Below are positions 1-24,036 of a stretch of 64,000 nt of DNA, in pieces. Numbering within the stretch: the stretch's first letter is position 1; the number at the start of each line of letters is the position of its first letter. This stretch comes from Burkholderia metallica (GTDB taxonomy: Bacteria; Pseudomonadota; Gammaproteobacteria; Burkholderiales; Burkholderiaceae). Under the pieces are notes generated by a model. The model worked only from the letters and a program-made list of their open reading frames with translations. It was not told where the DNA came from and did not search any database. A program made the position numbers and the translations under genes. The stretch spans positions 1 through 64,000 of the forward strand of contig NZ_CADFDB010000006.1 in assembly GCF_902832845.1 (NCBI RefSeq), read 5' to 3'.

Positions 1-13
1 CAACAACCCTCTT

Positions 14-128
14 TGCCTGATGACCATAGCGAGTCGGTCCCACCCCTTCCCATCCCGAACAGGACCGTGAAACGACTCTACGCCGATGATAGTGCGGATT
101 CCCGTGTGAAAGTAGGTAATCGTCAGGC
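14..128 (+). rRNA. rrf: 5S ribosomal RNA
   Basis: This is the 5S rRNA at the end of an rRNA operon whose 16S and 23S genes lie before the window. The ends TGCCTGATG and CGTCAGGC pair to form helix I. The inner segment CCCATCCCGAACAGG is the conserved loop B/helix III region of bacterial 5S rRNA. The length of about 115 nt fits the family, and a strong terminator follows directly. The exact ends may be off by one or two bases. Confidence 0.95.
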
Positions 129-143
129 TCCCTAAGCCAGAAA

Positions 144-171
144 CCCCCGCTCGAACAGGCGGGGGTTTTTG
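144..171 (+). terminator. Rho-independent terminator of the rRNA operon
   Basis: A GC-rich stem, CCCCCGC (144-150) with GCGGGGG (159-165), has an 8-nt loop and is followed by five T. It sits 15 nt after the 5S rRNA, where an rrn terminator is expected. Confidence 0.88.
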
Positions 172-371
172 CATTTCGGCGATGGAAATGCGTATGGAGT
201 ACTCAGCATGGATGCTTGTGGTGCTGCATGCGCTGATGCTCGCGATGCCGTCGAATGCCGAGAGAGCGGAACGCAACTTTTCGTCTGTTGTGACGGTTGT
301 TGACGTTACTTGAAGCGCCGCCGCAGACCATTTGCATCAAGGCGCGTGCCGAAGTGCTTCACGCCGGGCCA

Positions 372-704
372 TCACCAGACAATAGGGCGGCGCAAAGGGG
401 CCAGCGCTGCGTCTTCCAGTTCCTTATCCTCTTCTTGGGCAGCTGCACCATAGGGCTGTTCTCGCCAGTTCAGTGCGCTGTAGTCGGGCATGATGATGAC
501 CCTTCGGGAATCAAAGTTGAACCGAAGATAGACGCGATCACCCGGCTTGAATCCGAACATCTCGAAGTGCGCGTCGATGGCGCGCATCCATGGCATGTAC
601 GGTTGGCCTTCCTGGGGGAGGTCAGGCTTGTTGTCGAGGGTCAGCTCAACCTCGGGATACTGTTTGAGCTTCTTGGGACGTGACTTACTATAGGCGTTAG
701 CCAT
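372..704 (-). CDS. SymE-like toxin family protein
   Basis: A 110-residue protein resembling the SymE family, small SpoVT/AbrB-fold proteins described in E. coli as SOS-regulated type I toxins. The recognisable core is the segment PWMRAIDAHFEMFGFKPGD and the following strand VYLRFNFDSRRVIIM (about residues 38-72), which corresponds to the SymE pattern P-W-(I/L)-R-L-x-G-x-W-L-x-x-A-G-F-x-x-G. The N-terminus is basic and the C-terminus acidic. The ribosome site AGGAG lies 7 nt before the ATG. SymE-like genes are often found in Rhs/polymorphic-toxin gene neighbourhoods in Burkholderia, which fits the unrecognised gene next door and its broken copy. No antisense RNA could be established. The family call is by motif only and toxicity is inferred. 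Confidence 0.6.
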   Translation of the reverse strand: MANAYSKSRPKKLKQYPEVELTLDNKPDLPQEGQPYMPWMRAIDAHFEMFGFKPGDRVYLRFNFDSRRVIIMPDYSALNWREQPYGAAAQEEDKELEDAALAPLRRPIVW

Positions 705-914
705 CTTCCGACTCCTGGTGTGAGTTGGTTGTGGTCAGCGGGTCGTATGGGTGGCAGCCCATGCGGCCCGCGCTTTTACTGCTTTGCTCTCTTCGGTTTA
801 CCTTCTGATTTGCACTCCAGAGGGAAACGATCTTCCCTATCGCTGGCGCAATAGGAAGTTTAGTTCGTAATCCATCTCATAAATCAGCGCGGCTTCGAAC
901 TAGCCGAACGGTAG

Positions 915-1655
915 ATGCTAGATCGTCGACAAATGACGGGAATTGATGTGTCGAACTTGAAGAGAATGTTTGGCGACTTCATGGATGGGCGCCAGAGCGG
1001 GCGTGCGTCGCGAGAAGCGTTCGAGCAGCAGCGGATGGCAATTGAGGGGCTTTTCGAGGTGGATCTGACGTACTTGCGCGAGACGTTTGTAGGAACGCCG
1101 GAGACACTTCAATCGGAGTCGTTTCCGGACTATCCCGGGGCGGTATGGATTGGGGGCCTTGGCGTCAAAGCGTTCTGCGTGACGCAGGATGTCGAAGTCG
1201 AGCAGTTCCCTGCCTTCGCTGATCTTGTCGTCGCAGGCAGGGAGCGAGTGGGGCCACGCCAGTTCGCGCGAGACGGGGCAATTCATGCATTCTTTTCCGG
1301 TGTCGATCGCTACTCCGGAAAGCAGGTCAACTTGCTGTCGAACGATGTCGAGCTTGTCCGCTTAGTTTCGGCAGCCGGATTCAATCCGCCACCGCCATGG
1401 CTCGCGTGGTATGAACTCGGCGCGTTGATATACAACCTGCAGGGCGATGCGCAGTATTGGTATGAGAATGTGTGGGATCGGTATTGGGAGAGTCTGAGTC
1501 TGGCTGAGCAGGATGCTTTTATCGACGAACGGAGATCATCAGCCCGTGATTATCTGAACGAGGAGGAGTGGGTGGAATGGATCGATGCGATTCGAACGAG
1601 GGACGCTCGTTATCGAGAGAGGTTGAGGATCGAGTACCCCGGTGATGGGCGATGA
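915..1655 (+). CDS. Hypothetical protein, possible immunity-type protein
   Basis: A 246-residue protein that I do not recognise. It has no signal peptide and no membrane segment. It is acidic and rich in Trp/Tyr in its second half (residues about 160-200: PPPPWLAWYELG and QYWYENVWDRYWE), a composition common in single-domain immunity proteins of polymorphic toxins. An internally deleted second copy lies at 1901-2030, so the gene was duplicated. Third codon positions are less G/C-biased than in the core genes, suggesting transfer. The position between a SymE-like gene and a remnant supports an immunity or toxin-array origin, but this is inference. Confidence 0.6.
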   Translation: MLDRRQMTGIDVSNLKRMFGDFMDGRQSGRASREAFEQQRMAIEGLFEVDLTYLRETFVGTPETLQSESFPDYPGAVWIGGLGVKAFCVTQDVEVEQFPAFADLVVAGRERVGPRQFARDGAIHAFFSGVDRYSGKQVNLLSNDVELVRLVSAAGFNPPPPWLAWYELGALIYNLQGDAQYWYENVWDRYWESLSLAEQDAFIDERRSSARDYLNEEEWVEWIDAIRTRDARYRERLRIEYPGDGR

Positions 1656-1900
1656 GTTGCGGCCAATTGGCACGCGAGTGACAGCCGGGTGACATCAACC
1701 GGTGACGGGCGACTGTCGGGATCGATTCAATGGCAGGTTGATGGCCGTCGTATTCGGGGATGCCCGAAGCTGTTTGCTGTCCAATGGTTTGCTGATGATG
1801 GTAACAATACGACTTCTTATAACCAATAAAATAAAGCCAAAAACAATGAAACGGTTCTATCTCAAGAAGGGACATCGCTGAGAAGTGGTGAGAAGCTGCA

Positions 1901-2030
1901 GTGTCGATCTTGATGACAATGTTTGGTGATTTTATTAATGCGTGCCGGGGCGGCGTCCCTTTGAACGACGGGGAGCGGGCGGACTGGCTCGACGTGATTC
2001 GAACGAGGGGCGATCGATATCGAGAGGTGC
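1901..2030 (+). pseudogene. Internally deleted copy of the gene at 915-1655
   Basis: The reading frame starting with GTG at 1901 encodes MFGDF near its start and WLDVIRTRGDRYRE some 25 residues later. These match MFGDF near the N-terminus and WIDAIRTRDARYRE at the C-terminus of the protein at 915-1655. Similarity is visible in DNA too, for example GATTCGAACGAGGG occurs in both copies. About 190 residues of the middle are missing, so this is a deletion remnant, not a working gene. Confidence 0.7.
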
Positions 2031-2502
2031 CGCGCACAGATCGTTTAGCAAAACGGGCAAGCAACTCCGCATCGTTGCGAAAGTCGATGAACCGATGCGG
2101 TCGTGCGGCCGGTTGAACTAGTGTGGCCATCTGCAGGCCGAGCAACACTCGCGGCTGACCACGGCGCTGTCCGGTGCACTGGCCTACGAGCGAGTCGGCC
2201 GACGTACTTGCCGAAAACGGGTCCAGCGTTGCCGCACATTTCGACCTGCTGCTCGACCGGCCGGTGCCCGAACAGACCATCCTGTAGCTTGCTTTGCGCG
2301 GCCTTCCGCCGTGACTCGAATGCAACTGCACCAGATCAGTAAGCTGCGCGACTTGGACGCTAGCTATGGAGGACAAGTAATTCGATCTCTACATCGGCTA
2401 ACATCCATCTTCACACATACAATAGCGGGTACGCTGGGACCCGAATGTGGGAAATGTTAACCACGTTCGCGCGAATTTATTACAGGACTCAAAATCACTG
2501 GC
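2031..2502. other. Gene-free stretch before the defence operon
   Basis: No supported gene. The part from about 2120 to 2290 is more GC-rich than its surroundings and contains short open stretches in shifting frames, one ending at the TAG near 2287. It may be a fragment of a former core-type gene, but I could not match it to a family. The stretch from 2400 to 2502 should hold the promoter of the operon; I see no convincing -35/-10 pair. Confidence 0.4.
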
Positions 2503-4380
2503 ATGAATACTGCAACGTGGGTGGTTGAAAACTGCCAAATTCTCCTTAGGAAGGCATCGGGAGAGCGCGTGGTTCCCCCAGCGATTGACATTTTCAGGGC
2601 AGTCTTCGGCCGTCTGCGTGTCTGTGCCGATGAGGCTGTCCGGAGCCCTCTAGACGACATTTCCTCGTTGACGTTCTCACGGGCGCCGGCCCAGCCGGCA
2701 GTTCGTCTTTCGGGGAGTGATGGCCGTAACCTCCGACTCACTTTTGGTTACGCTACGGACGCGGGCTTTGTTCGAGTACATGGCGAGAGCGACCAGCTCG
2801 TTCACGACGGTCGCTGGTACCCCATCAGGGCGGACCTACTGCAGTCGGCTTTGGACTGGCTGGAGATTGCGGGAGTGAAGCCCGATGGGCTCATCACCGT
2901 TGGTGATCTAGTCGCCCTGCGAGCTCAAAAGGAGACGCCGTTTACGGTATTCGATGAAGTAGTCTTCGACGCTGCGAAATCAGTCATTGATGAGCCGCGG
3001 GCGCCGATTACGGGCTTCTCCGGAGCTCTCTACCCATACCAGTTGTCGGGCGTTGCCTTTCTGTCCCTTGTGGCTGAGCAGGGCGTTGGTTGCATCCTTG
3101 GTGACGAGATGGGATTGGGTAAGACCGCGCAGGTTATTGCGCTGCTGCAGATTGAGAAGAATGCTGGGCGTGGGCCGGCCCTTGTCGTTGCTCCAGCAAC
3201 ACTACTCGAAAACTGGCGGAGAGAGCTCGCGTCCTTTGCGCCTACGCTCACTGTCTCGCTTCACGCTGGAGCAGACCGGGCCGGCATATCCGCCCGGCTA
3301 CAGGGCACTGACATCATTCTTGTCTCTTATGACACAGCAATGCGCGACGAGGAAATACTCAGCCAGATAGCGTGGAACGTCATCGTACTTGATGAGGCAC
3401 AAGCTATTAAGAACCCCGAGGCACAACGGACAGTTACCGTAAAGCGGCTGCCTCGCAGGGTCTCGATTGCCGTAACCGGTACGCCGTTGGAGAACCGCAT
3501 TGATGACCTATGGTCTTTGGCGGACTTTGCGATGCCCGGATTACTGGGTGGACGGAACGCATTCCTTTCCCAATTTGGCAACGAGATAGAGGACGCTGTC
3601 CGGTTAGCGCCCATTGTTGCCCCGATGCTGTTGCGGCGCAAGGTGATGGACGTTGCGCAGGACCTGCCCGAGCGAATTGAAGTGCCACAGGCCTTGCAGA
3701 TGCCATTGCACCTTGCTCAGGTATATGAGGCTCTGCGTAAGCGGACTTTGGAGGAGTTTGGGCCGACGGGGGGACTGGTCGCAACGACAAGGCTTCGCAT
3801 GCTCTGCGCCCACCCTCGACTTGTTGGTAGCTGGCACGCGGATCCGTCCATCGAAATGCCTAAATACGAGCGGACGGTGGAGCTTCTAGAGGAAATCTTT
3901 AGTGGAGGGGAGAAAGCACTCATTTTCTCTACATATCAGGCTATGGCAAACCTTTTTATGTCTGATATGCCGAGGCGATTTCCGAAGGCATTCCTTGACT
4001 TTATCGATGGGCGGGTCGAGGGGACTATGCGACAGGCCGTCGTCGACCGGTTCTTTGAGCACCGGGGGTATGGCGTACTCTTCCTAAATCCGAAGGCAGC
4101 TGGGTCCGGCCTTAATATCACGACGGCCAACCACGTGATTCACTATAACCCTGAGTGGAACCCAGCACTAACAGCTCAGGCGTCGGCGCGTTCCTACAGA
4201 AGAAAGCAGACAAGGCCAGTGACGATTCATCATTTATTCTACGTCCAGACGGTAGAGGATGTGATTAGAAGCGCGGCGGCCTTCAAGCAAGACCTTGCCC
4301 GTGAAGCTGTAACTGGTCACGAGGGAGACATCGACCCCATGGCCATTGCGCAGGCGCTGCACGTTTCGCCGCTGACCTAA
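2503..4380 (+). CDS. SNF2-family DNA-dependent ATPase (helicase superfamily 2)
   Basis: A 625-residue SWI2/SNF2-type ATPase, expected to move along or remodel DNA using ATP. Residues 1-175 form an N-terminal region of unknown fold. The ATPase core shows motif I GDEMGLGKT (200-208), the DEAQ box (297-300) and motif III TGTPLENRIDDLWSL (from 325). The C-terminal lobe shows AAGSGLN (about 532-538) and a motif VI QASARSYRRKQTRP (from about 559). In that motif the usual D-R-x-x-R-I-G-Q reads A-R-S-Y-R-R-K-Q: both arginines are kept, the Asp and Gly are not. It is the first gene of the operon, 17 nt before the EcoRII-N gene. There is no clear ribosome site before the ATG and the next GTG is at codon 7, so the start is uncertain. 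Codon use is more AT-rich than in the core genes. SNF2 ATPases have been linked to MORC/R-M loci in comparative genomics (Iyer, Abhiman and Aravind 2008). Confidence 0.9.
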   Translation: MNTATWVVENCQILLRKASGERVVPPAIDIFRAVFGRLRVCADEAVRSPLDDISSLTFSRAPAQPAVRLSGSDGRNLRLTFGYATDAGFVRVHGESDQLVHDGRWYPIRADLLQSALDWLEIAGVKPDGLITVGDLVALRAQKETPFTVFDEVVFDAAKSVIDEPRAPITGFSGALYPYQLSGVAFLSLVAEQGVGCILGDEMGLGKTAQVIALLQIEKNAGRGPALVVAPATLLENWRRELASFAPTLTVSLHAGADRAGISARLQGTDIILVSYDTAMRDEEILSQIAWNVIVLDEAQAIKNPEAQRTVTVKRLPRRVSIAVTGTPLENRIDDLWSLADFAMPGLLGGRNAFLSQFGNEIEDAVRLAPIVAPMLLRRKVMDVAQDLPERIEVPQALQMPLHLAQVYEALRKRTLEEFGPTGGLVATTRLRMLCAHPRLVGSWHADPSIEMPKYERTVELLEEIFSGGEKALIFSTYQAMANLFMSDMPRRFPKAFLDFIDGRVEGTMRQAVVDRFFEHRGYGVLFLNPKAAGSGLNITTANHVIHYNPEWNPALTAQASARSYRRKQTRPVTIHHLFYVQTVEDVIRSAAAFKQDLAREAVTGHEGDIDPMAIAQALHVSPLT

Positions 4381-4397
4381 AAAGGGATTTGTGACCA

Positions 4398-4829
4398 ATG
4401 ACAGCAGAAATTCGAAAGAAGCTCAGTCCCAACGACGTTGGGACTACCGGTGGCCATCAGGCGGGTATTCTGGTTCCCAAGGAAGAGCATATTCTCTTGT
4501 TCCTTCCCGCGCTCGACAAGTCGGTGAAAAATCCGCGGATGAAGCTTGTCGTATTTGAGCGTGAAAATCGCGAACGATGGGAATTTAACTTTATATATTA
4601 CAACAACAAGCTGTTCAAAGAGGGCACGCGCAACGAATACCGCCTTACTGGAATGACTAAGTTCATGCGTGCAATTGACGCCAAGGTCGATGACGTACTT
4701 GTCTTTTCCCGCGACGAAAACGCTTCCTTTGAAGTGAATATCATCCGGTCGAACGCGTCATATGGTTCGGAAATAGACGGCAACACCCTTGTTTTGGGTG
4801 GAGGCTGGACGATTATCCAGTCGCGCTAA
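4398..4829 (+). CDS. Free-standing EcoRII N-terminal (B3-like) DNA-binding domain protein
   Basis: A 143-residue protein that corresponds to the N-terminal effector domain of the restriction enzyme EcoRII, a B3-like barrel that binds CCWGG. It keeps KLSPNDVGTTGGHQAG (residues 8-23; EcoRII has a near-identical S-x-N-D-x-G-x-T-G-G-H-Q), then YYNNKLF (67-73) and TRNEYRLT (77-84; EcoRII TRNEKRIT). EcoRII is about 400 residues and carries a PD-(D/E)XK nuclease after this domain; here the protein ends with the barrel, so no cleavage activity is expected. The following gene starts 18 nt later, so there is no split-off nuclease fragment. In the operon it could serve as the site-recognition subunit for the ATPases and the HNH nuclease. 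Domain call from remembered EcoRII sequence. Confidence 0.85.
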   Translation: MTAEIRKKLSPNDVGTTGGHQAGILVPKEEHILLFLPALDKSVKNPRMKLVVFERENRERWEFNFIYYNNKLFKEGTRNEYRLTGMTKFMRAIDAKVDDVLVFSRDENASFEVNIIRSNASYGSEIDGNTLVLGGGWTIIQSR

Positions 4830-4847
4830 CAGATTTTAGAGCATCCT

Positions 4848-6443
4848 ATGACAGAAAAACATATCAGCGTACCGCCTGACGTGGCCCGTATCAGCGAGGG
4901 CCTGCGAGATACTGGGTACGATTTCAATGCTGCCGTCGCGGACATCCTCGACAATTCGATCGCAGCAGGTGCAGATAAGATTCATGTTCGACTAGAAGTC
5001 GACTTCGCAGATAGCGTCGTGATTTCCATCATGGACAACGGCCACGGCATGAACGAAGAAGGTCTCGTCAACGCCATGAAGTACGGCTCCAGCAAGCGAG
5101 CGAATACCAAGAGCCTTGGCAAGTTTGGTTTGGGGCTTAAGACGGCTTCAACGGCCTTTTGTCGGCGTCTGTCGGTTATCTCACGTGACTCAGGCGAGTC
5201 TCCAGTGCTGCGGGCCACGTGGGACCTTGATGACATGGCAGCTTCGAATAGCTGGAACCTCGAAATTGCCGCTGCTGATGCAGCTCACAATCAACTGCTT
5301 GATGAGGTTGCGCTGGGAGCATCTGGTACGGTTGTGCTTTGGGAGAATATTGACCGAATCGCTGCACCTGAGGGGCAACCTATTCGGAAGACCGTTGAAA
5401 AGCTGGAAACTGCTCTTCGCGACCACATCGCGATTGTTTTTCAGCGCTTCCTTGACGCCAATGATGTTCGTGAGCGAAACGTTCATATCAAGCTCAATGG
5501 TGAGCCTATTGCCGCATGGGACCCGTTTTGCATTGTAGAAACCAAGGAATCAATCGCGGAAAAGAAGATGGACGTGCAGCTGCCAGATGGAACGCAGACC
5601 TCGTTCATCGTTCGAGCTTTCGTGCTACCGCGAAAAGAAGAGTTCTCGTCTGATGCGAATCGCATCGCGGCGCGTATCTCGAATGAGCGTCAGGGGCTAT
5701 ACATCTACCGGGAAAACCGGCTCATTCACGGTCCTGACTGGATGAACATGTTTAAGCAGGAACCCCACTACTCCTTGCTCCGTGTCGAGCTGTCGTTTGA
5801 CCACTCGCTTGATAACGCATTCCAGGTGGACATCAAGAAATCCCGTATCGAGCTGAATTCAGGTCTTTACGAATGGCTGCGCGACAAATTTCTTGCGGGG
5901 CCGCGGCGGGAAGCGGAAACCCGGTACCGCAAGGGGGCCGCTGGAGTTGCTAAGGGGGCGGCTGTTCTGCTCCACACCCCGGCCAGCAACGTCATCGAGC
6001 AGAAGGCCTCCGCACTCAAGACTGCAGCGGTCGCTCAGGTTGACGAAAAGACCGGCATGGTTACGGTCAACAACAATTCGGGCGTGACCACGACCACGGT
6101 TCGCTTGCTGAATTCGGATGACATTGGCAGTGCCCACGTGGTTACCAACGGAACTCTCGAGCATGGGGTACTTTGGGAGCCCACCATTGGCAAGAACAGC
6201 AAGGCGGCGGTAGCCCTTAACACGGGCCATCCCTTCTACACAAAAGCATATTTGCCCAACAAGGCCAATAGTACAGTCGTTCAGGCCATGGACTACCTGC
6301 TTTGGGCGCTTGCTCAAGCCGAACTCAACAATATCAATCCGGACAACCAGGAGGCATTTGAAGAATTTCGTATTGAAGTCTCGCGCAATCTCAAGAAGCT
6401 GGTGGCCGATTTGCCGGACCCGGTCGACAACGAGGATAGCTGA
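4848..6443 (+). CDS. GHKL ATPase, MORC/MutL-like
   Basis: A 531-residue protein with a Bergerat-fold ATPase at its N-terminus: N-box D32-I-L-D-N36-S, G1 box D63-N-G-H-G67, and G2 box GKFGLGLKTAS (91-101). This places it with the Hsp90/MutL/MORC ATPases that close like a clamp when ATP binds. An S5-like second domain probably follows (to about residue 340), then a low-complexity linker and a C-terminal region of about 150 residues that I do not recognise. The general-base Glu of the N-box (E42 in GyrB, E29 in MutL) is Asp here. MORC-type ATPases beside methylases and SNF2 proteins were described as restriction-modification components in comparative genomics. The start lies 18 nt after the EcoRII-N gene; its stop overlaps the start of the HNH gene by one base. 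Confidence 0.85.
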   Translation: MTEKHISVPPDVARISEGLRDTGYDFNAAVADILDNSIAAGADKIHVRLEVDFADSVVISIMDNGHGMNEEGLVNAMKYGSSKRANTKSLGKFGLGLKTASTAFCRRLSVISRDSGESPVLRATWDLDDMAASNSWNLEIAAADAAHNQLLDEVALGASGTVVLWENIDRIAAPEGQPIRKTVEKLETALRDHIAIVFQRFLDANDVRERNVHIKLNGEPIAAWDPFCIVETKESIAEKKMDVQLPDGTQTSFIVRAFVLPRKEEFSSDANRIAARISNERQGLYIYRENRLIHGPDWMNMFKQEPHYSLLRVELSFDHSLDNAFQVDIKKSRIELNSGLYEWLRDKFLAGPRREAETRYRKGAAGVAKGAAVLLHTPASNVIEQKASALKTAAVAQVDEKTGMVTVNNNSGVTTTTVRLLNSDDIGSAHVVTNGTLEHGVLWEPTIGKNSKAAVALNTGHPFYTKAYLPNKANSTVVQAMDYLLWALAQAELNNINPDNQEAFEEFRIEVSRNLKKLVADLPDPVDNEDS

Positions 6444-7306
6444 TGTCGGAAGGGCTTGATATTGAGGTGTTGCGGCGCAAGCTCGAAGGTAGGTTCCAAG
6501 TTGCTCTGTATTCTCAGTCAGAGACTGTTGATGGCGGGGACTTCGATGCGTTGCGTCCAGTGGAGCTGGAGCAGGGCAATGGCTTCGCCATTCTCCTCTC
6601 CAGAACGCATAGGCAGTTTGAGGCATCTTTCAAAGCCGACAATTTCGCCGGCGCGCTTCTGCGCGGCATGTCGGAGGCCAGTGACGGCCAGAAAAAGGCG
6701 TTCTTTCGTGCCCGAGCGGCTGCTGAGGCTTCAGGGGCGCAGGTTTACGTGGCCATTAACGGCAACGATGACGAGAGCTACCTTACTCGGAAGGACTCTT
6801 GGACCCGAGTGGAGATTGACGTCTCTAGCCGATTTCGTTCAGGCAAGACGGCAGACGAAATAGTGGCAACGGCCTTCCACGTCGCTTCGTCCTGCCTCGC
6901 ACTTGTTTTAGCCTTGACAGGTATTGGCGAAGAGACCGATGTGGCCCCGGATAACGCCGTCAAGGGTTTGCCAGAGGGTGCCAAGCTCCGGGTTGAGGTA
7001 AACCGCTATGAGCGCAGCCCCGTCAATCGGGCTGCCTGCATCGAGCACTACGGACTCCGATGTCAGTGCTGTGGCTTCGATTTCGCGGATTTCTACGGCG
7101 ACTTGGGGGACGGCTACATTGAGGTACACCATCGCACGCCTGTCTCGAAACTGGGAGACGATTACGTTGTCGACCCCGTCAGGGACTTGGTGCCGCTGTG
7201 CGGCAACTGTCACGCCATGGTCCACCGGACGGACCCTCCAACAGTCGTGGAGGACTTGCGTGCCCAGCTGGATGCCCGCAAAGCCGCGAGGCCGCAGGGC
7301 CACTGA
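6443..7306 (+). CDS. HNH endonuclease of the defence operon
   Basis: A 287-residue protein with a C-terminal HNH nuclease of McrA type. A zinc knuckle is formed by C207-x-C209-C210 and C253-x-x-C256, with the catalytic pair H229-H230 in IEVHHRTPVS and the final motif PLCGNCHAMVH. Residues 1-195 are an unrecognised N-terminal domain, probably for partner or DNA contact. The start codon shares its A with the stop of the MORC-like gene (TGATG), so translation is coupled and the two products probably act together. As the EcoRII catalytic domain is missing from this locus, this HNH protein is the best candidate for the DNA-cutting subunit. Confidence 0.85.
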   Translation: MSEGLDIEVLRRKLEGRFQVALYSQSETVDGGDFDALRPVELEQGNGFAILLSRTHRQFEASFKADNFAGALLRGMSEASDGQKKAFFRARAAAEASGAQVYVAINGNDDESYLTRKDSWTRVEIDVSSRFRSGKTADEIVATAFHVASSCLALVLALTGIGEETDVAPDNAVKGLPEGAKLRVEVNRYERSPVNRAACIEHYGLRCQCCGFDFADFYGDLGDGYIEVHHRTPVSKLGDDYVVDPVRDLVPLCGNCHAMVHRTDPPTVVEDLRAQLDARKAARPQGH

Positions 7307-7704
7307 AGCTTTTTGTCGGATTCCTGGCGAACTGGAGCAGGACCTGGTAAAGTGATGCAAACTTCTAGGAAAATCTTGCTGGGACGCGCCTTTGCGGTTG
7401 CAGCCGTGGGGAGAGCGAATCAGCCGGCTGCTTCAGCGTCATGAAAGTGGGTATCGCAGACAGGATAGATGTCTCTTGTTTCCATATGGAGCAGTACGCA
7501 TTCCGGCGCCGTCGCCGTGGGCTGGGTGATGCGGATGTCTGGCACGTGAAGAACGTTGTCGTTGGCAGGGCGAGGCCAGTTGGAAGTGCAGGTTCTTTGA
7601 GGCGTCCGGACAGGCTATTTGTTTTTTTTGCCAAGTGGCCGCCAGGAATCCTGGGGAATTATTTTGTCACGCTCCAGGCGATGAACAACTACTGAAAGCT
7701 ACGT
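7307..7704. other. Spacer between HNH and methylase genes, probable methylase promoter
   Basis: About 400 bp with no gene I can support. Open frames at 7441-7695 (+) and 7365-7634 (-, TTG start) encode Arg/Ser/Pro-rich sequences of no known type and lack ribosome sites. The spacer contains four CCWGG sites (7323, 7343, 7642, 7650), which is dense for 400 bp, and it most likely carries a separate promoter so that the methylase can be made without the nuclease operon. Confidence 0.45.
7642..7654. promoter_or_regulatory. Paired CCWGG sites in inverted symmetry upstream of the methylase
   Basis: CCAGG-AAT-CCTGG is symmetrical in its arms and ends 50 bp before the methylase start codon. CCWGG is the predicted target of both the methylase and the EcoRII-N protein, so this may be a site through which methylation state or protein binding feeds back on methylase expression. 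Function is inferred. Confidence 0.4.
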
Positions 7705-8799
7705 ATGGCAGTTCCAAAATTCACCTTCATCGACCTCTTTGCCGGCATTGGTGGCATCAGAAGAGGATTTGAATATATCGGCGGAAAGTGTGTCTTTACC
7801 AGCGAGTGGGACAAATTTGCCCGTATTACCTACGCAGCCAACCATAACGAGACGGAAGCAGACATCGCAGGGGATATCTGGTCTGTTCCGCTTGACGTCA
7901 TTCCTGACCATGACGTCTTGGTGGGCGGGTTCCCTTGTCAGCCATTTTCGCTGGCTGGCGTTTCGAAGAAGAACGCGCTGGGTCGGACTCATGGATTCGC
8001 TTGTGACGCGCAAGGCACCTTATTTTTCCGTGTTGCTGAAATTCTGAAGGAAAAACGTCCAGCAGCCTTCATGCTGGAGAACGTGAAGAACCTCGTTTCC
8101 CACAACAAGGGACATACCTTCCGTGTCATTCAGCACGTGCTGGAAAAGGAACTTGGCTATCACATCAGTTGGAAGGTCATCGATGGCAAGCGATGGACGC
8201 CGCAGCATCGTGAGCGGATTTATATCGTGGGTTTTCGTGAGGATGTTGGGTTCGAATGGCCCGATGAGTCTGCATGGCCAGAACCGGGTTCTGTCAAGTT
8301 GGGTTCCATCTTGGAGCCGGAGGAAAAAGTCGACGCGAAATATATCCTCACCGACAAGCTTTGGAATTACCTGCAGGCCTATCGGGACAAGCATTCCAAG
8401 GCAGGTAATGGTTTTGGTTGTTCTGTTGTGACGCGCAACGAGACGACCCGGACCCTGTCGGCCCGCTATCATAAGGACGGCTCAGAGATTCTCGTGCATC
8501 GTGGCCCAGGCCTCAATCCACGTCGCCTTACCCCTCGTGAATGCGCACGACTCATGGGTTTTGAGGACAGCTTTGTGTTGCCTGTCTCCGACACTCAGTT
8601 GTATCGACAATTTGGCAATTCCGTGGTTGTACCCGCAGTCGAGGCGGTCGCCAGTGCCATGGAACCCTATCTGAGGCTGGCTCTCAAGATGAACGGGAAG
8701 GCCTCGGGTGTGGCAAAGACCCCCGAGAAGCCAGCGGCAATTCTGAAGGGTACCCCGAACCTGCCGTCGCGGCCCGTTAAAATTCCAGTAGTGGCTTAG
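7705..8799 (+). CDS. DNA (cytosine-5) methyltransferase, Dcm/EcoRII type
   Basis: A 364-residue m5C methyltransferase that should protect the host DNA. Motifs in order: [11 protein letters not shown] (8-17), IV PCQPFS with catalytic C78 (77-82), VI ENV (125-127), [14 protein letters not shown] (about 168-177), [16 protein letters not shown] and [10 protein letters not shown]. The target-recognition region between VIII and IX contains [33 protein letters not shown] and [18 protein letters not shown]. These are very close to E. coli Dcm and M.EcoRII, so the predicted product is C(m5C)WGG. The N-terminal extension of about 80 residues found in Dcm and M.EcoRII is missing; the protein begins directly at motif I. 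The Vsr gene follows at once, as in the E. coli dcm-vsr pair. Confidence 0.93.
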
Positions 8800-8808
8800 G
8801 TATTGGGT

Positions 8809-9255
8809 ATGACGGACATCACAGACGTGGCGACGCGTAGTCGGATGATGTCAGGTATTCGGGGTAAAAATACAAAACCCGAGCTGGTTGTCCGGAAGGC
8901 ATTGTACGAGCGGGGTCTTCGCTACCGACTGCATGTCCGCAGTCTGGCCGGCACCCCTGACCTCGTCTTCCCGCGCTACAAAGCAGTCGTATTCGTCCAT
9001 GGGTGCTTCTGGCATCGGCACAATTGTGCTCTATTCAAGATGCCATCATCTCGTCCAGAGTTCTGGAGGGAGAAACTGGACCGGAATCGGGAGAGGGACC
9101 GTGAACACATGACTAAGCTGCTGCAAGACGGTTGGAGGATTGCTGTCGTGTGGGAATGCTCCTTGCGAACAGCCATCAAGTCAAATGACGAGAGCTTTTT
9201 CAATCGACTTGCCGACTGGATAAAAGCCCAAGAGTTGACCTCAATTGAGCTTTAA
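8809..9255 (+). CDS. vsr: Very short patch repair endonuclease Vsr
   Basis: Vsr nicks beside T:G mismatches that arise when 5-methylcytosine in a CCWGG context deaminates. With the ATG at 8809 the 148-residue protein numbers exactly like E. coli Vsr: E25, D51 (GTPDLVF), H64 and H69 (HGCFWHRHNC) all fall at the same positions, so the active site is intact. A TTG six bases upstream (8803) is in frame but less likely. It lies 9 nt after the methylase stop. Its presence supports the predicted CCWGG methylation. In a defence locus it could alternatively serve as a nickase. Confidence 0.93.
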   Translation: MTDITDVATRSRMMSGIRGKNTKPELVVRKALYERGLRYRLHVRSLAGTPDLVFPRYKAVVFVHGCFWHRHNCALFKMPSSRPEFWREKLDRNRERDREHMTKLLQDGWRIAVVWECSLRTAIKSNDESFFNRLADWIKAQELTSIEL

Positions 9256-9406
9256 ATGCGCTAGGGTGAAACAACGCCGCTGACCGGCTCGGATCGTCAA
9301 CGTATCTTTTGATGCCCCACCGTGTGCCCGGCACCCTATCTTTGGAACAGCGTTAGTGCCCCGAAACCTGACGGAGGGGCTACGGCTCTTGCAGTTGCCA
9401 TCGCGC

Positions 9407-10147
9407 TCAGCTCATCGCGGCAATATGGGTCGCAAGCTTGTTTCGGAGGGCGAGCCGTTCCTTTCCGAAATGGAGCTCGCGATGACAGCGGGGGCATAGT
9501 GCGGCCGCATTGGCCATAGTGTCGTCGCCGTCTTCGCTCAATGGGGTCACATGGTGTACTTCCAAGTATGTGGCGCCGTCTTCTTTCTCGAACAACTCGC
9601 ATTTGCACCCCGGCATCTCGCACTTTCCCGCTGAGCGCAGTATCGCGCCTCGTACAACGTAGGGGTTTCGGGCGAAGTCATTTCGCCGTATCTCTTGCTT
9701 TTCTGGTTTCCCCTTTGCCTCTTTTGCGCGCTCGAGGACGGTCTTCTTGTCTGCGCGCGCCACTACCTCGGCTGTTATAGCTGTGACGGATTTTGGTGCG
9801 GCTTTGGTCTTAATTGCGAACAGTTGCGCCCCGACACTCCCAATGACAACTTCGTCACCTTGGTTGAGCCATGAACTGATGATTTCGTGGCCCATACGTG
9901 CTTCGGGAGCGCGATCTGCTGCGGACGAGCGCTCGGCATAGTAGTAGGACGACTTAATTGATTTGACGTTCGTGTCGAACAGTACGAGGATGACGAATTC
10001 CGGCGCTGGCCGCCCTTTAGCGGGCTCGATGCCAGATGATTCGATTGCCGCGCGCTGGTCCTTGTTTGGTACGTATGCGTTCTTTTTCTTGTCTGTTGCC
10101 GTAACCGTCTTTGTGCCGTAAGTATCAAAGATGCTGCCCCAATCCAT
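9407..10147 (-). CDS. HNH endonuclease, convergent to the methylase-vsr pair
   Basis: A 246-residue protein (248 if the ATG at 10153 is used; the ATG at 10147 has the better spacing to AAGGAG). The C-terminal quarter is an HNH nuclease: C-x4-C (CEMPGC), LEVHHVTPLSEDGDD and C-x2-C (CPRCHRELHF). The N-terminal 150 residues are unrecognised and are followed by a Lys/Glu-rich linker. It is transcribed toward vsr, with 151 bp between the stops. Its codon use is AT-richer like the operon, so it probably arrived with the island. It may be a second effector or a separate McrA-like restriction enzyme. Confidence 0.8.
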   Translation of the reverse strand: MDWGSIFDTYGTKTVTATDKKKNAYVPNKDQRAAIESSGIEPAKGRPAPEFVILVLFDTNVKSIKSSYYYAERSSAADRAPEARMGHEIISSWLNQGDEVVIGSVGAQLFAIKTKAAPKSVTAITAEVVARADKKTVLERAKEAKGKPEKQEIRRNDFARNPYVVRGAILRSAGKCEMPGCKCELFEKEDGATYLEVHHVTPLSEDGDDTMANAAALCPRCHRELHFGKERLALRNKLATHIAAMS

Positions 10148-10237
10148 TGCCATTCTCTCCTTGCTAACCTCAGCCTGTTGTTCTTAGGGTGCGCGCCTAC
10201 CGGCGTCGCCAACGGCGCCTCCTGCTCACCAAAGACA

Positions 10238-10260
10238 ACGCCCGGTGTCCCGGGCGTTTT
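10238..10260 (-). terminator. Hairpin downstream of gyrB
   Basis: The perfect 8-bp stem ACGCCCGG/CCGGGCGT (10238-10245 with 10250-10257) has a 4-nt loop. On the minus strand it lies about 100 nt after the gyrB stop with a moderate T-rich tail; on the plus strand it is followed by TTTT. It marks the boundary between the island and the core genes. Confidence 0.6.
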
Positions 10261-10357
10261 GATTCTCAGCGGCAGTCAGATTTTTCACCGACTGCGGAAG
10301 CAATTTTTCACTTGTCCAGCACAGTTTTCACTTTCTGTGACATCCGAAAATGCAGAT

Positions 10358-19795: not shown

Positions 19796-21190
19796 ATGCT
19801 CGCTACCGATTCCGATCCGATCGTCGCTATTGCCACTGCTGCCGGCCGCGGAGGCATCGGGGTCGTCCGCGTGTCGTTCGGGCGCGGCGGCGAAGCGGCC
19901 GCGTTGCCGCTGATCGACGCGTTGTGCGGACAGAAGCTCGCGCCGCGCCATGCGAGCTACGTGCCGTTTCTCGATGAGCACGGCGCGCCGCTCGACCGCG
20001 GGATCGCGCTGTATTTCCCGGCGCCGCATTCGTACACCGGCGAGCACGTGCTCGAGTTGCAGGGGCATGGCGGGCCGATCGTGATGCAACTGCTGCTGCA
20101 GCGCTGCCTCGATGCGGGTCGCGGCTTCGGGCTCAGGCTCGCGGAGCCCGGCGAATTCACGCGGCGCGCGTTCCTGAACGACAAGCTCGATCTCGCACAG
20201 GCCGAGGCCGTTGCCGACCTGATCGAAGCCAGCACCGAAGCTGCGGCGCGTTCGGCCGGCCGTTCGCTCGACGGGGCGTTTTCGCGGCAGATCCATGCGC
20301 TCGTCGACGACGTGATCACGCTGCGGATGCTGGTCGAGGCGACGCTCGATTTCCCCGAAGAAGAGATCGATTTCCTGGAAGCGGCCGACGCGCGCGGCAA
20401 GCTCGCGAAGATCCGCGCGCAACTCGCGCACGTGCTCGGCGATGCGCGGCAGGGCGCGCTGTTGCGCGAGGGGTTGTCGGTCGTGCTCGCGGGGCAGCCG
20501 AACGTCGGCAAGTCGTCGTTGCTGAATGCGCTGGCCGGTGCGGAACTGGCGATCGTCACGCCGATCGCGGGCACGACGCGCGACAAGGTTGCGCAGACGA
20601 TCCAGGTCGAAGGGATTCCGCTGCACATCATCGATACGGCCGGGTTGCGCGAGACGGAGGACGAGGTCGAGCGGATCGGCATCGCGCGCACGTGGAGCGA
20701 GATCGAGCGTGCGGACGTCGTGCTGCATCTGCTGGATTCGCGCACCGGGATGACGGCGGACGACGAGACGATCGCGGCGCGGTTTCCGGGCGGCGTGCCG
20801 GTGGTACGCGTGCTGAACAAGACGGATCTGACCGGCGTGGCGGCGTGTGTCGAACATCCGGCCGCGGAAGGCGATCTGACGGAGGTGCATCTGTCGGCGA
20901 AGCGCGGTGACGGGATCGACATGCTGCGTGCGGAGTTGCTGCGGATCGCCGGGTGGCAGGCGGGGGCCGAAGGCGTGTATCTCGCGCGCGAGCGGCATCT
21001 GATCGCGTTGCGGGCCGCGCAGGAGCATCTGGCGCAGGCGGCGGATCATGCTGATCAGCGCGCGCAGTCGCTCGATCTGTTTGCCGAGGAGCTTCGGCTC
21101 GCGCAGGAACAGCTCAATGCGATTACCGGGGAGTTCACTTCGGACGATCTGCTGGGGGTGATTTTCAGCAGGTTTTGTATCGGGAAATAG
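19796..21190 (+). CDS. mnmE: tRNA uridine-5-carboxymethylaminomethyl modification GTPase MnmE
   Basis: A GTPase that works with MnmG to modify the wobble uridine of tRNAs. 464 residues; the start [22 protein letters not shown] is the conserved one, the frame being open further up. The N-terminal tetrahydrofolate-binding domain contains SYTGEDVxE-like [16 protein letters not shown]. The G domain has G1 [10 protein letters not shown]2 [10 protein letters not shown]3 DTAG and G4 NKTD. The C-terminus FCIGK carries the essential cysteine. It follows the rpmH-yidC cluster as in many bacteria. Confidence 0.98.
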
Positions 21191-21291
21191 AAGCGAAAAG
21201 GATTGCGGGGCGGGAATGGCACAGCTATCGCCCGGCAATAGAACGTGCCTGCATCCGCGTGACGACTGCCAGTCAGATTGACACTGTGGTT

Positions 21292-21666
21292 TTACAGATG
21301 CGGACGGGCCGCTAGCACCCGATCGATAAACGATGGCGGCAGCGACACATATACAGAATCATCTCCGCCGTCACCTTTTGAAAATGAGACGTAGGCCTCG
21401 CTATAACTATTCCAGGAAATTGCGGGAGTCGGTGTACTGAATGTGTGCTGGGCTATTAACCTCCCAGTTTGTGCGATGTATACGCGGCCAACATACCGTG
21501 AATCTCCACCTGGAACCCAATCTAAAAGGCACAGGTCGGCAAGATACATTCCATCCGGAGATATCGACGTTCTGCACTCTTCCCCTCGAGGCGTTCTGTC
21601 AAAGGCAAAGGTGCCAATCAGTGCCGTGGCGAGCAGTGTATAAGTAATTTTCAAAGAAATTGTCAT
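21292..21666 (-). CDS. Small exported or anchored protein, immunity-like
   Basis: A 124-residue protein with an N-terminal hydrophobic segment (residues 4-22, KITYTLLATALIGTFAF) that may be a signal peptide or anchor. The remainder is related to the C-terminal half of the protein at 23375-23902: both have S-P-x-G-x-Y, a G-R/ER-L-x-A-x-x-T strand and end with LPP-S/T-x-x-D-R-x-x-A-R/A-x-P. It starts 19 nt after the DUF6402-type gene and is in the same direction, the usual order of an effector and its immunity gene. I do not know the family. The role is inferred from position and from the duplication. Confidence 0.6.
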   Translation of the reverse strand: MTISLKITYTLLATALIGTFAFDRTPRGEECRTSISPDGMYLADLCLLDWVPGGDSRYVGRVYIAQTGRLIAQHTFSTPTPAISWNSYSEAYVSFSKGDGGDDSVYVSLPPSFIDRVLAARPHL

Positions 21667-21685
21667 GATTTATTGTTGAATTTGA

Positions 21686-22903
21686 TCATAGTGAAATTTC
21701 TATGGGAGGGGAGATTGGGATGAATTTTTTGTCAGAGTAGATGATAAAGTCTCCGCCTCTGCCATGTATCTCGGACCATTTTCTAAAATCAATATTTTCT
21801 ACCGGATAGTGGACGTTTTCCTTGACGAGTGAATCACCTCTGGCGACGGCATATTTGACATATGGGATATGCTCGGAGTTCGAGAATGCAGCGATTCCAC
21901 TATATGGAACAATGATGACGCCGTCGCTACTCCAATGCCCTAAGTATTGGGATCGCTCATGAGATTTGTCGGTGAATGTATAGTTGTCTTTCACATATAC
22001 CCACACTCCGGTCACTTCAGCTATTGTTCTGTGTGAATCCACGTCCCACGAGAAGCGCGCGCTTCCGAGCGCCGCATAGATATTGAAGGATCCGAGTGCT
22101 CCGGATAGGTCGTCAGGCACACCATTGTTGCGAAGTTGTGCATCTAATTGAGTTTCGATTTTTTGCCCAAACGTGCTGTCTACTTTTGAGTATTGAAATT
22201 GGAATCTTCGGTGCAAATCCCGAAGATCATTGCCACATATGTCGTCGGTGTAGAGTCGCGCTGCGCAGTCTTTATGCGGGATCAATAGTTTGTAAAGCTC
22301 GACTCTGGATTTGGATGAGCGAATCATTTTATTAATAAGGTGGTCGAATTGCCGCTTCGCTCGGGGGAAGCGCATAATCCAATCCAATTTAATAGTGGAC
22401 ATGTCATACATGTCGGATGGATATGGTTTTCCATCTTGATTGATTTCTAGCGATTCATCCGAGGAAGTCCGTGAATAATTTAACTTTCCAGAGAACCATC
22501 GCTCCATAAGTTTGGCAGATGTCGGGAGGTACATTTTACGCATTGCTGCGGGAATCTCTTGAATATCGAACGCTGGTACAGAATCGCTCTTTTTTAGTTT
22601 CACGATGGCGGGTTTGGGAGGGGCGGAGGCATTTAGCCAAACTTGAAAGCGTGCCAGCGCCTTGCCGGCCTTTTCCAAGTCATCAACCATTTTGTCAAGC
22701 GAGTCGCGCTTGGGCGTGGCGGAGGAATGTTTGAGTTCGGTTGCGTTCGATTTTTGTTGCACCGGAAGCGGCGACGCAGGTTTATCCATGGATAACGAGA
22801 TATTTGGAACAATCTTGCATCCATCGGCGCCATCGTGAAGTTTCCACTTCCAGAAAATTTTATTTATCGTGAAATAGGGAATTTTTTCATTGTTCGATGC
22901 CAT
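21686..22903 (-). CDS. DUF6402-type protein, putative polymorphic/T6SS-associated effector
   Basis: A 405-residue protein. The central and C-terminal parts resemble DUF6402 proteins as I remember them: EIPAAMRKMYLPTSAKLMERWFSG (about 110-133; note the family's I-P-x-A-M-R-K-M...A-x-L-M-x-R-W-F), VWVYVKDNYTF, then HYPVENIDFRKW and EIHGRGGDFIIYSD near the end. Such genes cluster in Proteobacteria with Rhs, VgrG and T6SS accessory genes; no biochemical function is known to me. There is no signal peptide. The gene is AT-rich compared with its neighbours, which suggests transfer. A broken copy of its last third lies just upstream on the other strand. Confidence 0.65.
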   Translation of the reverse strand: MASNNEKIPYFTINKIFWKWKLHDGADGCKIVPNISLSMDKPASPLPVQQKSNATELKHSSATPKRDSLDKMVDDLEKAGKALARFQVWLNASAPPKPAIVKLKKSDSVPAFDIQEIPAAMRKMYLPTSAKLMERWFSGKLNYSRTSSDESLEINQDGKPYPSDMYDMSTIKLDWIMRFPRAKRQFDHLINKMIRSSKSRVELYKLLIPHKDCAARLYTDDICGNDLRDLHRRFQFQYSKVDSTFGQKIETQLDAQLRNNGVPDDLSGALGSFNIYAALGSARFSWDVDSHRTIAEVTGVWVYVKDNYTFTDKSHERSQYLGHWSSDGVIIVPYSGIAAFSNSEHIPYVKYAVARGDSLVKENVHYPVENIDFRKWSEIHGRGGDFIIYSDKKFIPISPPIEISL

Positions 22904-22992
22904 TTCTATTTGGGATCCGGTGATGTTGGGTGGTATGCGCGATGCCTGTTACGCTAGCGTGACCGCACCCGTAAAATCAATCGGACTAGTTC

Positions 22993-23343
22993 GAAATCGT
23001 TGCTAATGTGACTGAGTTTTGGGTCAAATATTCCTGGGGTTTTATTGGTCGTCTAAGCGCACCGGGATCTTGAGGCCGTCGATAGGTGTGCAGATACTCA
23101 AAGGGGTTGTGACTTTTTATTTTTCTCGCCAAGGTAGCAGGTCGGGCGTTAGCTATCATTGTCCTGGTGCCAACGGTGGCCGGTGCAGCGGATATTCCAT
23201 GGGTAGAATATCCCGTTGCGGTGGGTGATGTACGAGTCGCGGGGAATGTCTATTACCCGGTTCGGAATAATTCATTTCGCGAGTGGCAGCAACGTCATCG
23301 TCGAGGTGGCGATTTCGTTATTTTTCAGATCACCGCTATATAA
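22993..23343 (+). pseudogene. Degraded DUF6402-type gene, C-terminal part
   Basis: Plus-strand frame starting at 22993 reads EIVANVTEFWVKYSWGF, similar to TIAEVTGVWVYVKDNYTF of the intact gene at 21686-22903. After three in-frame stops (TGA, TAG, TGA) the same frame resumes with IIVLVP, IPWVEYPVAVGD and FREWQQRHRRGGDFVIF before a TAA at 23341. These match IIVPYSG, IPYVKYAVARGD and FRKWSEIHGRGGDFIIY in the same order. The N-terminal two thirds are missing. It is directly followed by the immunity-like gene at 23375. Confidence 0.75.
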
Positions 23344-23374
23344 CGTTGCGAGAACCCATTAGGCTTCGATTCGC

Positions 23375-23902
23375 ATGAATGTGAATATTAATGAGTCGGG
23401 CATATGGTTGGCGCTCGCTCTTCTGGCGATAGTATTGCCCGTTATCGTGCTCGCTTCGATAGTGCGGTTGCTAAACTCTTTCTTGTCTGGCTCAGGAAGT
23501 TGGGCTGATGTTGTTGCGAAGGAGGTTTGGATTTTCATTCGACGCGCATTCGTTTCGGCTGCCGTCGTCACTGTCCTCGGGTTTGGCTGGAGCTACTGGA
23601 AAGACGTACAACTGCGCGCGATTTGCGATTCACGCACGCAAAAAATCGAACGCTCCCCGCACGGAGGCTATTGGGCACGATACTGCTATTTTGGAGATAC
23701 GATCGTTCTCAGGCTTTACGACAGGGAGGGCGAGCGTCTCGTTGCCGAGCGAACGTATCGGGACGGGTCTCGCATACCCGTTGAGCTTCATTGGGCGAAG
23801 GAGGCATTGATGTACCCCCAAGGGCTCGAGTTCGGCGAAACATTTGGCGAAATCAGTTTGCCACCGACTCTTCTTGACCGGATGATGGCGCGGCTTCCCT
23901 AG
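23375..23902 (+). CDS. Membrane-anchored protein, immunity-like
   Basis: A 175-residue protein with a strong hydrophobic helix at residues 10-34 and a second hydrophobic stretch at about 58-72, followed by a soluble domain. That domain (from C87) is related to the protein at 21292-21666: SPHGGYWARYC against SPDGMYLADLC, and LPPTLLDRMMARLP against LPPSFIDRVLAARP. It follows the DUF6402 remnant by 31 bp in the same direction, so it was probably the partner of a lost effector. Family unknown; role inferred. Confidence 0.6.
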   Translation: MNVNINESGIWLALALLAIVLPVIVLASIVRLLNSFLSGSGSWADVVAKEVWIFIRRAFVSAAVVTVLGFGWSYWKDVQLRAICDSRTQKIERSPHGGYWARYCYFGDTIVLRLYDREGERLVAERTYRDGSRIPVELHWAKEALMYPQGLEFGETFGEISLPPTLLDRMMARLP

Positions 23903-24036
23903 CAGATCACGTTCGACGCCCATGCTTCGCCAGCACATCGCGCTCAAGGGAGGGGACGCCTGATTGAGTTGCGGTCCGGATCATCGATCCAGCATGGGCG
24001 AGCATGCCAATCAAACCATCCGGACCCCCATCCGCC

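What the first reader, a model, noticed from the sequence alone, without database searches (positions are those of the whole stretch)
2503..9255. A taken-apart EcoRII-like restriction system: CCWGG methylase, Vsr and EcoRII-N reader, with SNF2 + MORC-like ATPase + HNH replacing the nuclease domain
Seen: a tight plus-strand operon SNF2 ATPase, EcoRII-N domain protein, GHKL ATPase, HNH nuclease (gaps 17 and 18 nt, then 1-nt overlap), followed by a Dcm-like methylase and Vsr. Known: Dcm, Vsr and EcoRII-N all act at CCWGG; MORC-like ATPases with SNF2 proteins and methylases have been described in silico as R-M components (Iyer, Abhiman and Aravind 2008). Inferred: the EcoRII-N protein finds unmethylated CCWGG, the SNF2 motor and the clamp-like ATPase assemble or move there, and HNH cuts. 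This ATP-dependent split design differs from classical EcoRII and is not DISARM or BREX.
Basis: partly seen in the sequence, partly recalled or inferred. Interest (0 to 1): 0.85.

Follow-up and report, generated by a model that had tools for sequence, protein, structure and literature searches.

The report
Portable CCWGG-reading restriction cassette with MORC
Bacteria carry a four-gene DNA-cutting kit, made of a small sequence reader, a motor, a clamp-like ATPase and a nuclease, that travels as one unit and plugs into different copies of one kind of DNA-methylating enzyme; it was predicted on paper in 2008, I found no published test of it, and it could now be tested simply in ordinary laboratory E. 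coli.

Summary
Iyer, Abhiman and Aravind (2008) already predicted this kind of system with all six parts, so it is a new member of a known, apparently untested kind. The interpretation needs correcting. The SNF2-EcoRII-N-MORC-HNH core behaves as one co-inherited unit (distance correlations 0.84-0.93), complete in 12 phyla. The methylase hardly follows it (0.02-0.20), yet all 46 well-flanked genome loci have a Dcm-type methylase. An EcoRII-C enzyme sits near the core in 21 of those 46, comes and goes at least 16 times on the MORC tree, and follows the methylase (0.61). So the core is not EcoRII taken apart but a separate module that works instead of, or beside, EcoRII at the same presumed site. 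In the window's genome no EcoRII-C was detected and the window's methylase is the only clear C5 methylase. Best model: the B3 reader finds unmethylated CCWGG, SNF2 and MORC load there with ATP, and HNH cuts. CglI/NgoAVII is the nearest tested mechanism. Cleavage and defence remain inferred.

The parts
2503..4380 (+). SNF2 ATPase (625 aa), motor
   Evidence: Pfam SNF2-rel_dom 9e-53 and Helicase_C 4.3e-14; nearest PADLOC model ZorD, 394 bits, C-terminal part of that model only; MGLGKT in 90 of 90 full-length family members
4398..4829 (+). stand-alone EcoRII-N / B3 protein (143 aa), presumed CCWGG reader
   Evidence: Pfam EcoRII-N 2.7e-16; family profile matches EcoRII structures 3hqf 9.4e-15 and 1na6 1.1e-13; H20, N45, P46, Y68, N69, G76, R78, E80, R82 unchanged in 84 of 84
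4848..6443 (+). MORC GHKL ATPase (531 aa), presumed DNA clamp
6443..7306 (+). HNH nuclease (287 aa) with an N-terminal domain of unknown role
7307..7704 (.). 398-bp gap holding 5 CCWGG sites, among them CCAGGAATCCTGG at 7642-7654
   Evidence: partly conserved in four near relatives
7705..8799 (+). Dcm-type C5 methylase (364 aa), without the N-terminal extension of E. coli Dcm
   Evidence: DNA_methylase 4.8e-82; best solved match 3lx6/3me5 at 355 bits against 185 for HhaI; tree
8803..9255 (+). Vsr mismatch endonuclease (150 aa)
   Evidence: TIGR00632 2.9e-45; E. coli Vsr 1cw0 1.5e-40

Best explanation
An ATP-dependent restriction-modification system for CCWGG. The Dcm-type methylase marks the host's CCWGG sites and Vsr repairs the T:G mismatches that 5mC deamination leaves. 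The other four proteins are one portable restriction unit. The stand-alone EcoRII-N (B3) protein is the specificity subunit and binds CCWGG when it is unmethylated. Binding licenses the SNF2 ATPase, and the MORC ATPase closes on the DNA as a clamp and holds or assembles the complex. The HNH protein then nicks or cuts near or beyond the site. Shown here: the parts, intact catalytic motifs, conserved reader residues, co-inheritance of the four, repeated exchange of methylase partners within one methylase family, no detected EcoRII-C in this genome.
For: Core four together in 45 of 46 well-flanked genome loci, 6 of 6 viral and 7 of 7 plasmid ones; Dcm-type methylase in 46 of 46, 6 of 6 and 7 of 7. 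Core distances correlate at 0.84-0.93, but with the methylase only at 0.02-0.20 (0.77-0.89 against 0.22-0.29 within one gene order). E. coli Dcm and an M.EcoRII-like enzyme nest among the cassette methylases on a tree (the partner of that enzyme matches EcoRII end to end). Of 23 sister MORC-like loci fetched, 0 have EcoRII-N, SNF2 or HNH of this family at E 0.001, and the 20 with a C5 methylase have quite different ones, 37-102 bits. Reader residues invariant. In this genome the only clear C5 methylase is the window's (276.6 bits; a second hit of 22.3 bits just passes the cut-off of 22) and no EcoRII-C was found. At the same chromosomal slot one same-genus genome has an EcoRII-C/Vsr/Dcm set without the core and another has the core in the other gene order. 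CglI/NgoAVII, with a B3 reader, an SF2 ATPase and a 5mC methylase, does cut DNA with ATP.
Against: No activity of any part is shown. The most divergent partner methylases (L079, L094, L115 at 429-437 bits against 568 for Dcm) may not read CCWGG. The methylase-core link is weak but above chance within one gene order (Mantel 1-6 of 1000) and for SNF2 over all loci (1 of 1000). The divergent methylase of Vibrio L021, whose locus has no reader of this type, also falls among the cassette methylases, on a long branch of unsure place. One full-length core-type MORC, L148, stands alone with none of the partners. The HNH N-terminal domain has no confident fold match.
Confidence: 0.62

Rival explanations
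1. MZA-like anti-phage system: the parts serve defence, but the trigger is a phage structure or infection state and the outcome is abortive; CCWGG methylation only keeps it quiet.
For: The MORC protein's best PADLOC model is MzaB (171 bits); many sister loci carry a C5 methylase and Vsr too, and L149, the one tested, also MzaC, MzaD and MzaE.
Against: A sequence-specific B3 reader is fixed in this family and absent from all 23 sister loci fetched; MzaC, MzaD and MzaE are not among the rows shown for nine window proteins.
Confidence: 0.15
2. The core is a helper of EcoRII: reader, motor and clamp bring extra CCWGG sites to an EcoRII-C enzyme that needs several sites; where EcoRII-C is missing the core is left over or uses HNH alone.
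For: EcoRII-C in 21 of 46 genome loci and 7 of 9 plasmid loci; EcoRII needs two or three sites (review passage).
Against: Not seen in 25 of 46 loci and not detected in the window's genome with the core motifs intact; at least 16 gains or losses; its distances do not follow the core's (0.16-0.19).
Confidence: 0.08
3. Methylation-dependent (type IV-like) attack: the reader binds methylated CCWGG and the cassette cuts DNA methylated by others.
For: The HNH half resembles the modification-dependent EcoKMcrA and a PADLOC type IV model (34.8 bits).
Against: 46 of 46 well-flanked loci carry their own Dcm-type methylase, which would be suicidal.
Confidence: 0.05
4. A repair or chromosome-structure system around 5mC, with Vsr and a MutL/MORC-like ATPase, not restriction.
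For: MORC, MutL and Vsr kinship; the GHKL-Vsr link is argued in Iyer 2008 (passages).
Against: Vsr is not found in 8 of 46 loci while the core stays; patchy spread (3 of 61 genomes, the window's own included), plasmids and viral contigs, and a slot rich in defence systems fit defence.
Confidence: 0.05

Closest known systems
Iyer-Abhiman-Aravind 2008 group-2 neighbourhoods (MORC + SWI2/SNF2, PMC2292703)
   Same: SWI2/SNF2, MORC, HNH or EcoRII-like nuclease, a VP1/RAV (B3) DNA-binding protein, mostly cytosine methylases and Vsr, all named as parts
   Different: Prediction only. In the two sections read: no fixed four-gene core, no Dcm-type link, no co-inheritance test, no statement that EcoRII coexists with the core at one locus (the figure was not seen)
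CglI / NgoAVII (PMC4267653)
   Same: 5mC methylase, B3 domain as sequence reader, separate SF2 ATPase, ATP-dependent cutting
EcoRII (type IIE)
   Same: N-terminal B3 domain of the same family, Dcm-type methylase partner, presumed site CCWGG
MZA (MzaABCDE)
   Same: MORC-like MzaB; C5 methylase and Vsr near most sister loci
   Different: MzaC, MzaD and MzaE proteins; no EcoRII-N reader in the sister loci
Zorya (ZorD, ZorE)
   Same: SNF2 nearest to ZorD; ZorE is an HNH protein whose action includes single-strand breaks (passages)
   Different: No ZorA/ZorB in the rows shown for nine window proteins

Membership tests
Iyer 2008 MORC/SWI2-SNF2 R-M kind | MORC by the GhXhhpXXRhl motif of its S5 domain | tested here: met
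Iyer 2008 MORC/SWI2-SNF2 R-M kind | SWI2/SNF2 helicase in the same operon | tested here: met
   core in 45 of 46 flanked loci
Iyer 2008 MORC/SWI2-SNF2 R-M kind | HNH or EcoRII-like nuclease, B3 DNA-binding protein, cytosine methylase, Vsr | tested here: met
   PF02362 B3 also hit at 1.7e-6, 28.3 bits, just under its 30.1 cut-off
Iyer 2008 MORC/SWI2-SNF2 R-M kind | restricts foreign DNA | not testable with these tools
   needs bench work
EcoRII (type IIE) | EcoRII-C nuclease domain | tested here: not met
   not in the window's six proteins; not detected in the genome (the search finds it in G021 at 2.2e-71)
EcoRII (type IIE) | EcoRII-N domain | tested here: met
MZA | MzaC, MzaD and MzaE beside MzaB | tested here: not met
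   only MzaB in the rows shown for nine window proteins; MzaB, C, D and E found in L149 as control
DISARM / BREX | DrmA/DrmB, or BrxC/PglZ | tested here: not met
   none in the rows shown for nine window proteins (25 of 36 and 25 of 59 rows shown for SNF2 and methylase); DrmD, BrxH and DrmMII rows are general SNF2 and methylase kinship
CCWGG methylase (Dcm/M.EcoRII) | sequence kinship with both known CCWGG methylases | tested here: met
   both nest among the cassette methylases
CCWGG methylase (Dcm/M.EcoRII) | methylates CCWGG | not testable with these tools
   no methylation data

The most novel reading that the evidence does not exclude
The four-gene core is a self-sufficient, portable restriction machine that needs no methylase of its own. 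Its stand-alone B3 reader makes it compatible with any host whose CCWGG sites are methylated, so resident Dcm (even that of E. coli K-12) would license it. Selection on the shared site, not co-inheritance, keeps it next to Dcm-type methylases. The bacterial MORC in it is a DNA clamp set off by missing 5mC, which would give the MORC-5mC link of eukaryotes a bacterial counterpart with a known address.
Probability: 0.42. Interest if true: 0.82.

Novelty: new member of a known kind. Interest (0 to 1): 0.6.

Why it matters
Bacterial MORC proteins were tied to restriction on paper in 2008, and I found no published test of this gene set in the library searched. This cassette supplies a predicted DNA address and a predicted off-switch (Dcm methylation) that E. 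coli laboratories hold as a strain pair. It would also show restriction specificity kept apart from both nuclease and methylase, and two unlike nucleases sharing one methylase at the same site.

Tried and rejected
EcoRII as ancestor taken apart: rejected as a general reading because EcoRII-C coexists with the core and follows the methylase, not the core.

CCWGG cluster before the methylase gene as an operator: 5 of the 10 CCWGG sites of window 1-10357 lie in the 398-bp gap, and M.EcoRII is reported to repress its own gene when its sites are methylated (review passage). But over 83 loci the excess in the 100 bp upstream is 34 against 15.6, shrinking to 14 against 7.3 after thinning to 42 loci (39 of 2000 random draws as high) while unrelated motifs such as CTWAG (2.5-fold) and ACWGT (1.83-fold) rise as well. 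Kept as a lead only.

A first profile comparison of the second B3 type with the core reader (probability 99.4) was flawed: its alignment mixed both types. Redone with the second type alone it is 79.0, E 1.6e-5, against 0.3 for shuffled columns; the notebook entry still holds the old figure.
Full report
OBSERVATION. Six plus-strand genes lie at window 2503-9255 as described, including the 17-nt and 18-nt gaps and the 1-nt overlap. Pfam, NCBIfam and PADLOC agree on the families, except that NCBIfam has no model for the EcoRII-N protein. The 143-aa EcoRII-N protein has no nuclease domain. The methylase is nearest to the Dcm structures 3lx6/3me5 (355 bits; HhaI 185; the name Dcm for these two is mine, the records say cytosine-specific methyltransferase), lacks the N-terminal extension of E. 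coli Dcm, and the PCQ, ENV/I/P and QxRxR motifs are kept in 83 of 83 full-length cassette methylases. Vsr matches E. coli Vsr over 139 residues.

WHAT WAS KNOWN. Sections 4 and 5 of Iyer et al. 2008 (PMC2292703; [quoted passage not shown] That is this gene set. Full-text searches of the CC-licensed library listed no experiment on it; subscription papers are not held, so this is a limited negative. Of later papers I saw passages only (PMC8011034, PMC12137116, PMC11890865, PMC4081073, PMC12707154) and one section (PMC9523054 section 11).

SURVEY. A scan of genome contigs with an eight-sequence EcoRII-N alignment kept the best 80 of 97 relatives, in 13 phyla, 50 of 80 in Pseudomonadota; the full core is seen in 12 phyla. 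Of these 80, 68 show a Dcm-type methylase, 54 a Vsr, 28 an EcoRII-C enzyme. All 12 without methylase have less than 6.5 kb on one side. Among the 46 with at least 6.5 kb on both sides: methylase 46 (430 bits or more), full core 45 (L088 lacks HNH), Vsr 38, EcoRII-C 21. Viral contigs: 9 loci, 6 with flanks, all six with core, methylase and Vsr; none of the 9 with EcoRII-C. Plasmids: the 9 records whose EcoRII-N match covers at least 80% all have core, methylase and Vsr, 7 of 9 with EcoRII-C (Pfam EcoRII-C at 1e-61 or better in the three checked; L016 has it broken). Two gene orders exist, SNF2-EcoRIIN-MORC-HNH (57 of 80) and the circular permutation MORC-HNH-SNF2-EcoRIIN (15 of 80); the other 8 are incomplete.

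ONE UNIT, MANY PARTNERS. On a quick tree of 78 MORC proteins (16 of 75 inner branches open, some long branches) the gene order changes at least 2 times, while presence of EcoRII-C changes at least 16 times among 59 scored loci and Vsr 7 times among 65. In 47 thinned of 67 loci with all six genes (L016, L035, L037 with split genes left out), distances of the four core proteins correlate at 0.84-0.93; core against methylase 0.02-0.20; core against Vsr 0.30-0.33. In 20 loci with EcoRII-C, it correlates with the methylase at 0.61 and with the core at 0.16-0.19. Within the first gene order alone (36 loci) the core stays at 0.77-0.89 and the methylase at 0.22-0.29, weak but above chance, and Vsr at 0.46-0.53. 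So methylases have been exchanged repeatedly, each time seen here for one of the same family. The simplest cause is a shared recognition site; that is inference.

WHICH SITE. E. coli K-12 Dcm and an M.EcoRII-like methylase (its partner matches EcoRII 1na6 over all 404 residues) fall inside the cassette methylases, in a 14-row clade with support 100. The window's methylase scores 613 bits on the family profile, Dcm 568, M.EcoRII-like 578 (the window is among the seven seeds of that profile). The most divergent ones score near 430, and the Vibrio L021 methylase (354 bits) also falls inside on a long branch, so CCWGG is less sure there. That R94, E96 and R98 contact the site is recalled from Golovenko 2009, which was not held. 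The review passage does state that EcoRII's N-terminal domains bind further copies of its site.

CONTROL. A MORC-anchored search of 398 genomes of the window's phylum gave 27 with a match: three at 679 bits or more, then a gap down to 284. I fetched 20 of the other 26 (the six weakest were left) and had five more sisters. Of these 25, two are full-length: G628 has the whole set and G060 (L148) a solitary MORC gene, an exception I cannot explain. The other 23 are sister loci: none has EcoRII-N or this SNF2/HNH, and 20 have a C5 methylase, at 37-102 bits on the Dcm profile. One of them, L149, is MZA-like by MzaB, C, D and E; the rest were not scanned for that.

A SECOND READER. Of 34 EcoRII-C enzymes longer than 380 aa found in the fetched loci, 12 have an N-terminal domain of the core/EcoRII type and 22 a different one (motif LSAVEA...SNQHE), remotely like the core reader (hhalign probability 79.0, E 1.6e-5; shuffled columns 0.3). 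The second type also occurs alone, as a 131-150 aa protein, in L022, L045, L091, L102 and L112, in none of which EcoRII-C was found, and as 114 aa in L021.

SETTING. The island lies downstream of gyrB. In 20 of 24 same-genus genomes I read the same slot (not read: G002, G009, G014, G015; one of the 20, L194, gives only 1 kb); the ORF layouts differ. Of 19 loci in which I scanned one large protein (two in L188), nine hit known defence families strongly: type I R-M (L169, L172, L189), DISARM (L180, L185), Ssp (L171, L198), type III R-M (L186), HKD+Snf2 (L192); L181, L188 and L191 gave partial hits, L190 a TnsB transposase, and L173, L187, L193, L195, L196 and L197 none at 1e-20. By my own profiles G018 (L181) holds this core in the other gene order there, and G021 (L187) holds EcoRII-C, Vsr and Dcm without the core. 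The host is probably a Burkholderia: G009, given as same genus, holds the cassette on a 32,028-base contig that matches the contig of Burkholderia sp. Bp8963 in length and place. That is an inference.

MECHANISM. See Best explanation. CglI/NgoAVII (abstract, passages and section 22 read) is the tested precedent: B3 reading, a separate SF2 ATPase, 5mC methylase, ATP-dependent cutting. The MORC clamp and HNH are what this cassette adds.

Noticed in passing
window 9407-10357, downstream of gyrB; L169, L171-L173, L180, L181, L185-L198: The gyrB 3' side looks like a defence-island hotspot in this genus: nine of 19 loci scanned (one or two large proteins each) hold a strong known defence-family hit, with differing cargo; GC of the first 6 kb is 0.50-0.61.
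   Followed up: partly
L022 16162-16560, L045 12976-13371, L091 10606-11001, L102 11097-11549, L112 9588-9992, L021 4297-4641: A second stand-alone B3 protein (LSAVEA...SNQHE type) near the core or its kin, with no EcoRII-C attached or found in the locus.
   Followed up: partly
L148 9521-11077: A full-length core-type MORC gene standing alone, without reader, SNF2, HNH or methylase in the 19.9 kb read.
   Followed up: no
window 7307-7704: Five CCWGG sites in 398 bp before the methylase gene, including an inverted repeat CCAGGAATCCTGG that is conserved in part in four near relatives; the methylase here lacks the N-terminal extension (HTH-like by eye) that the one in L187 has.
   Followed up: partly
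window 9407-10153, minus strand: A second McrA-like HNH protein (248 aa; Pfam HNH 3.1e-10), convergent with Vsr, only weakly like the cassette HNH (33 bits).
   Followed up: no
window 21001-24000: A second low-GC patch (0.47-0.53) with a DUF6402 protein at 21686-22903, minus strand.
   Followed up: no
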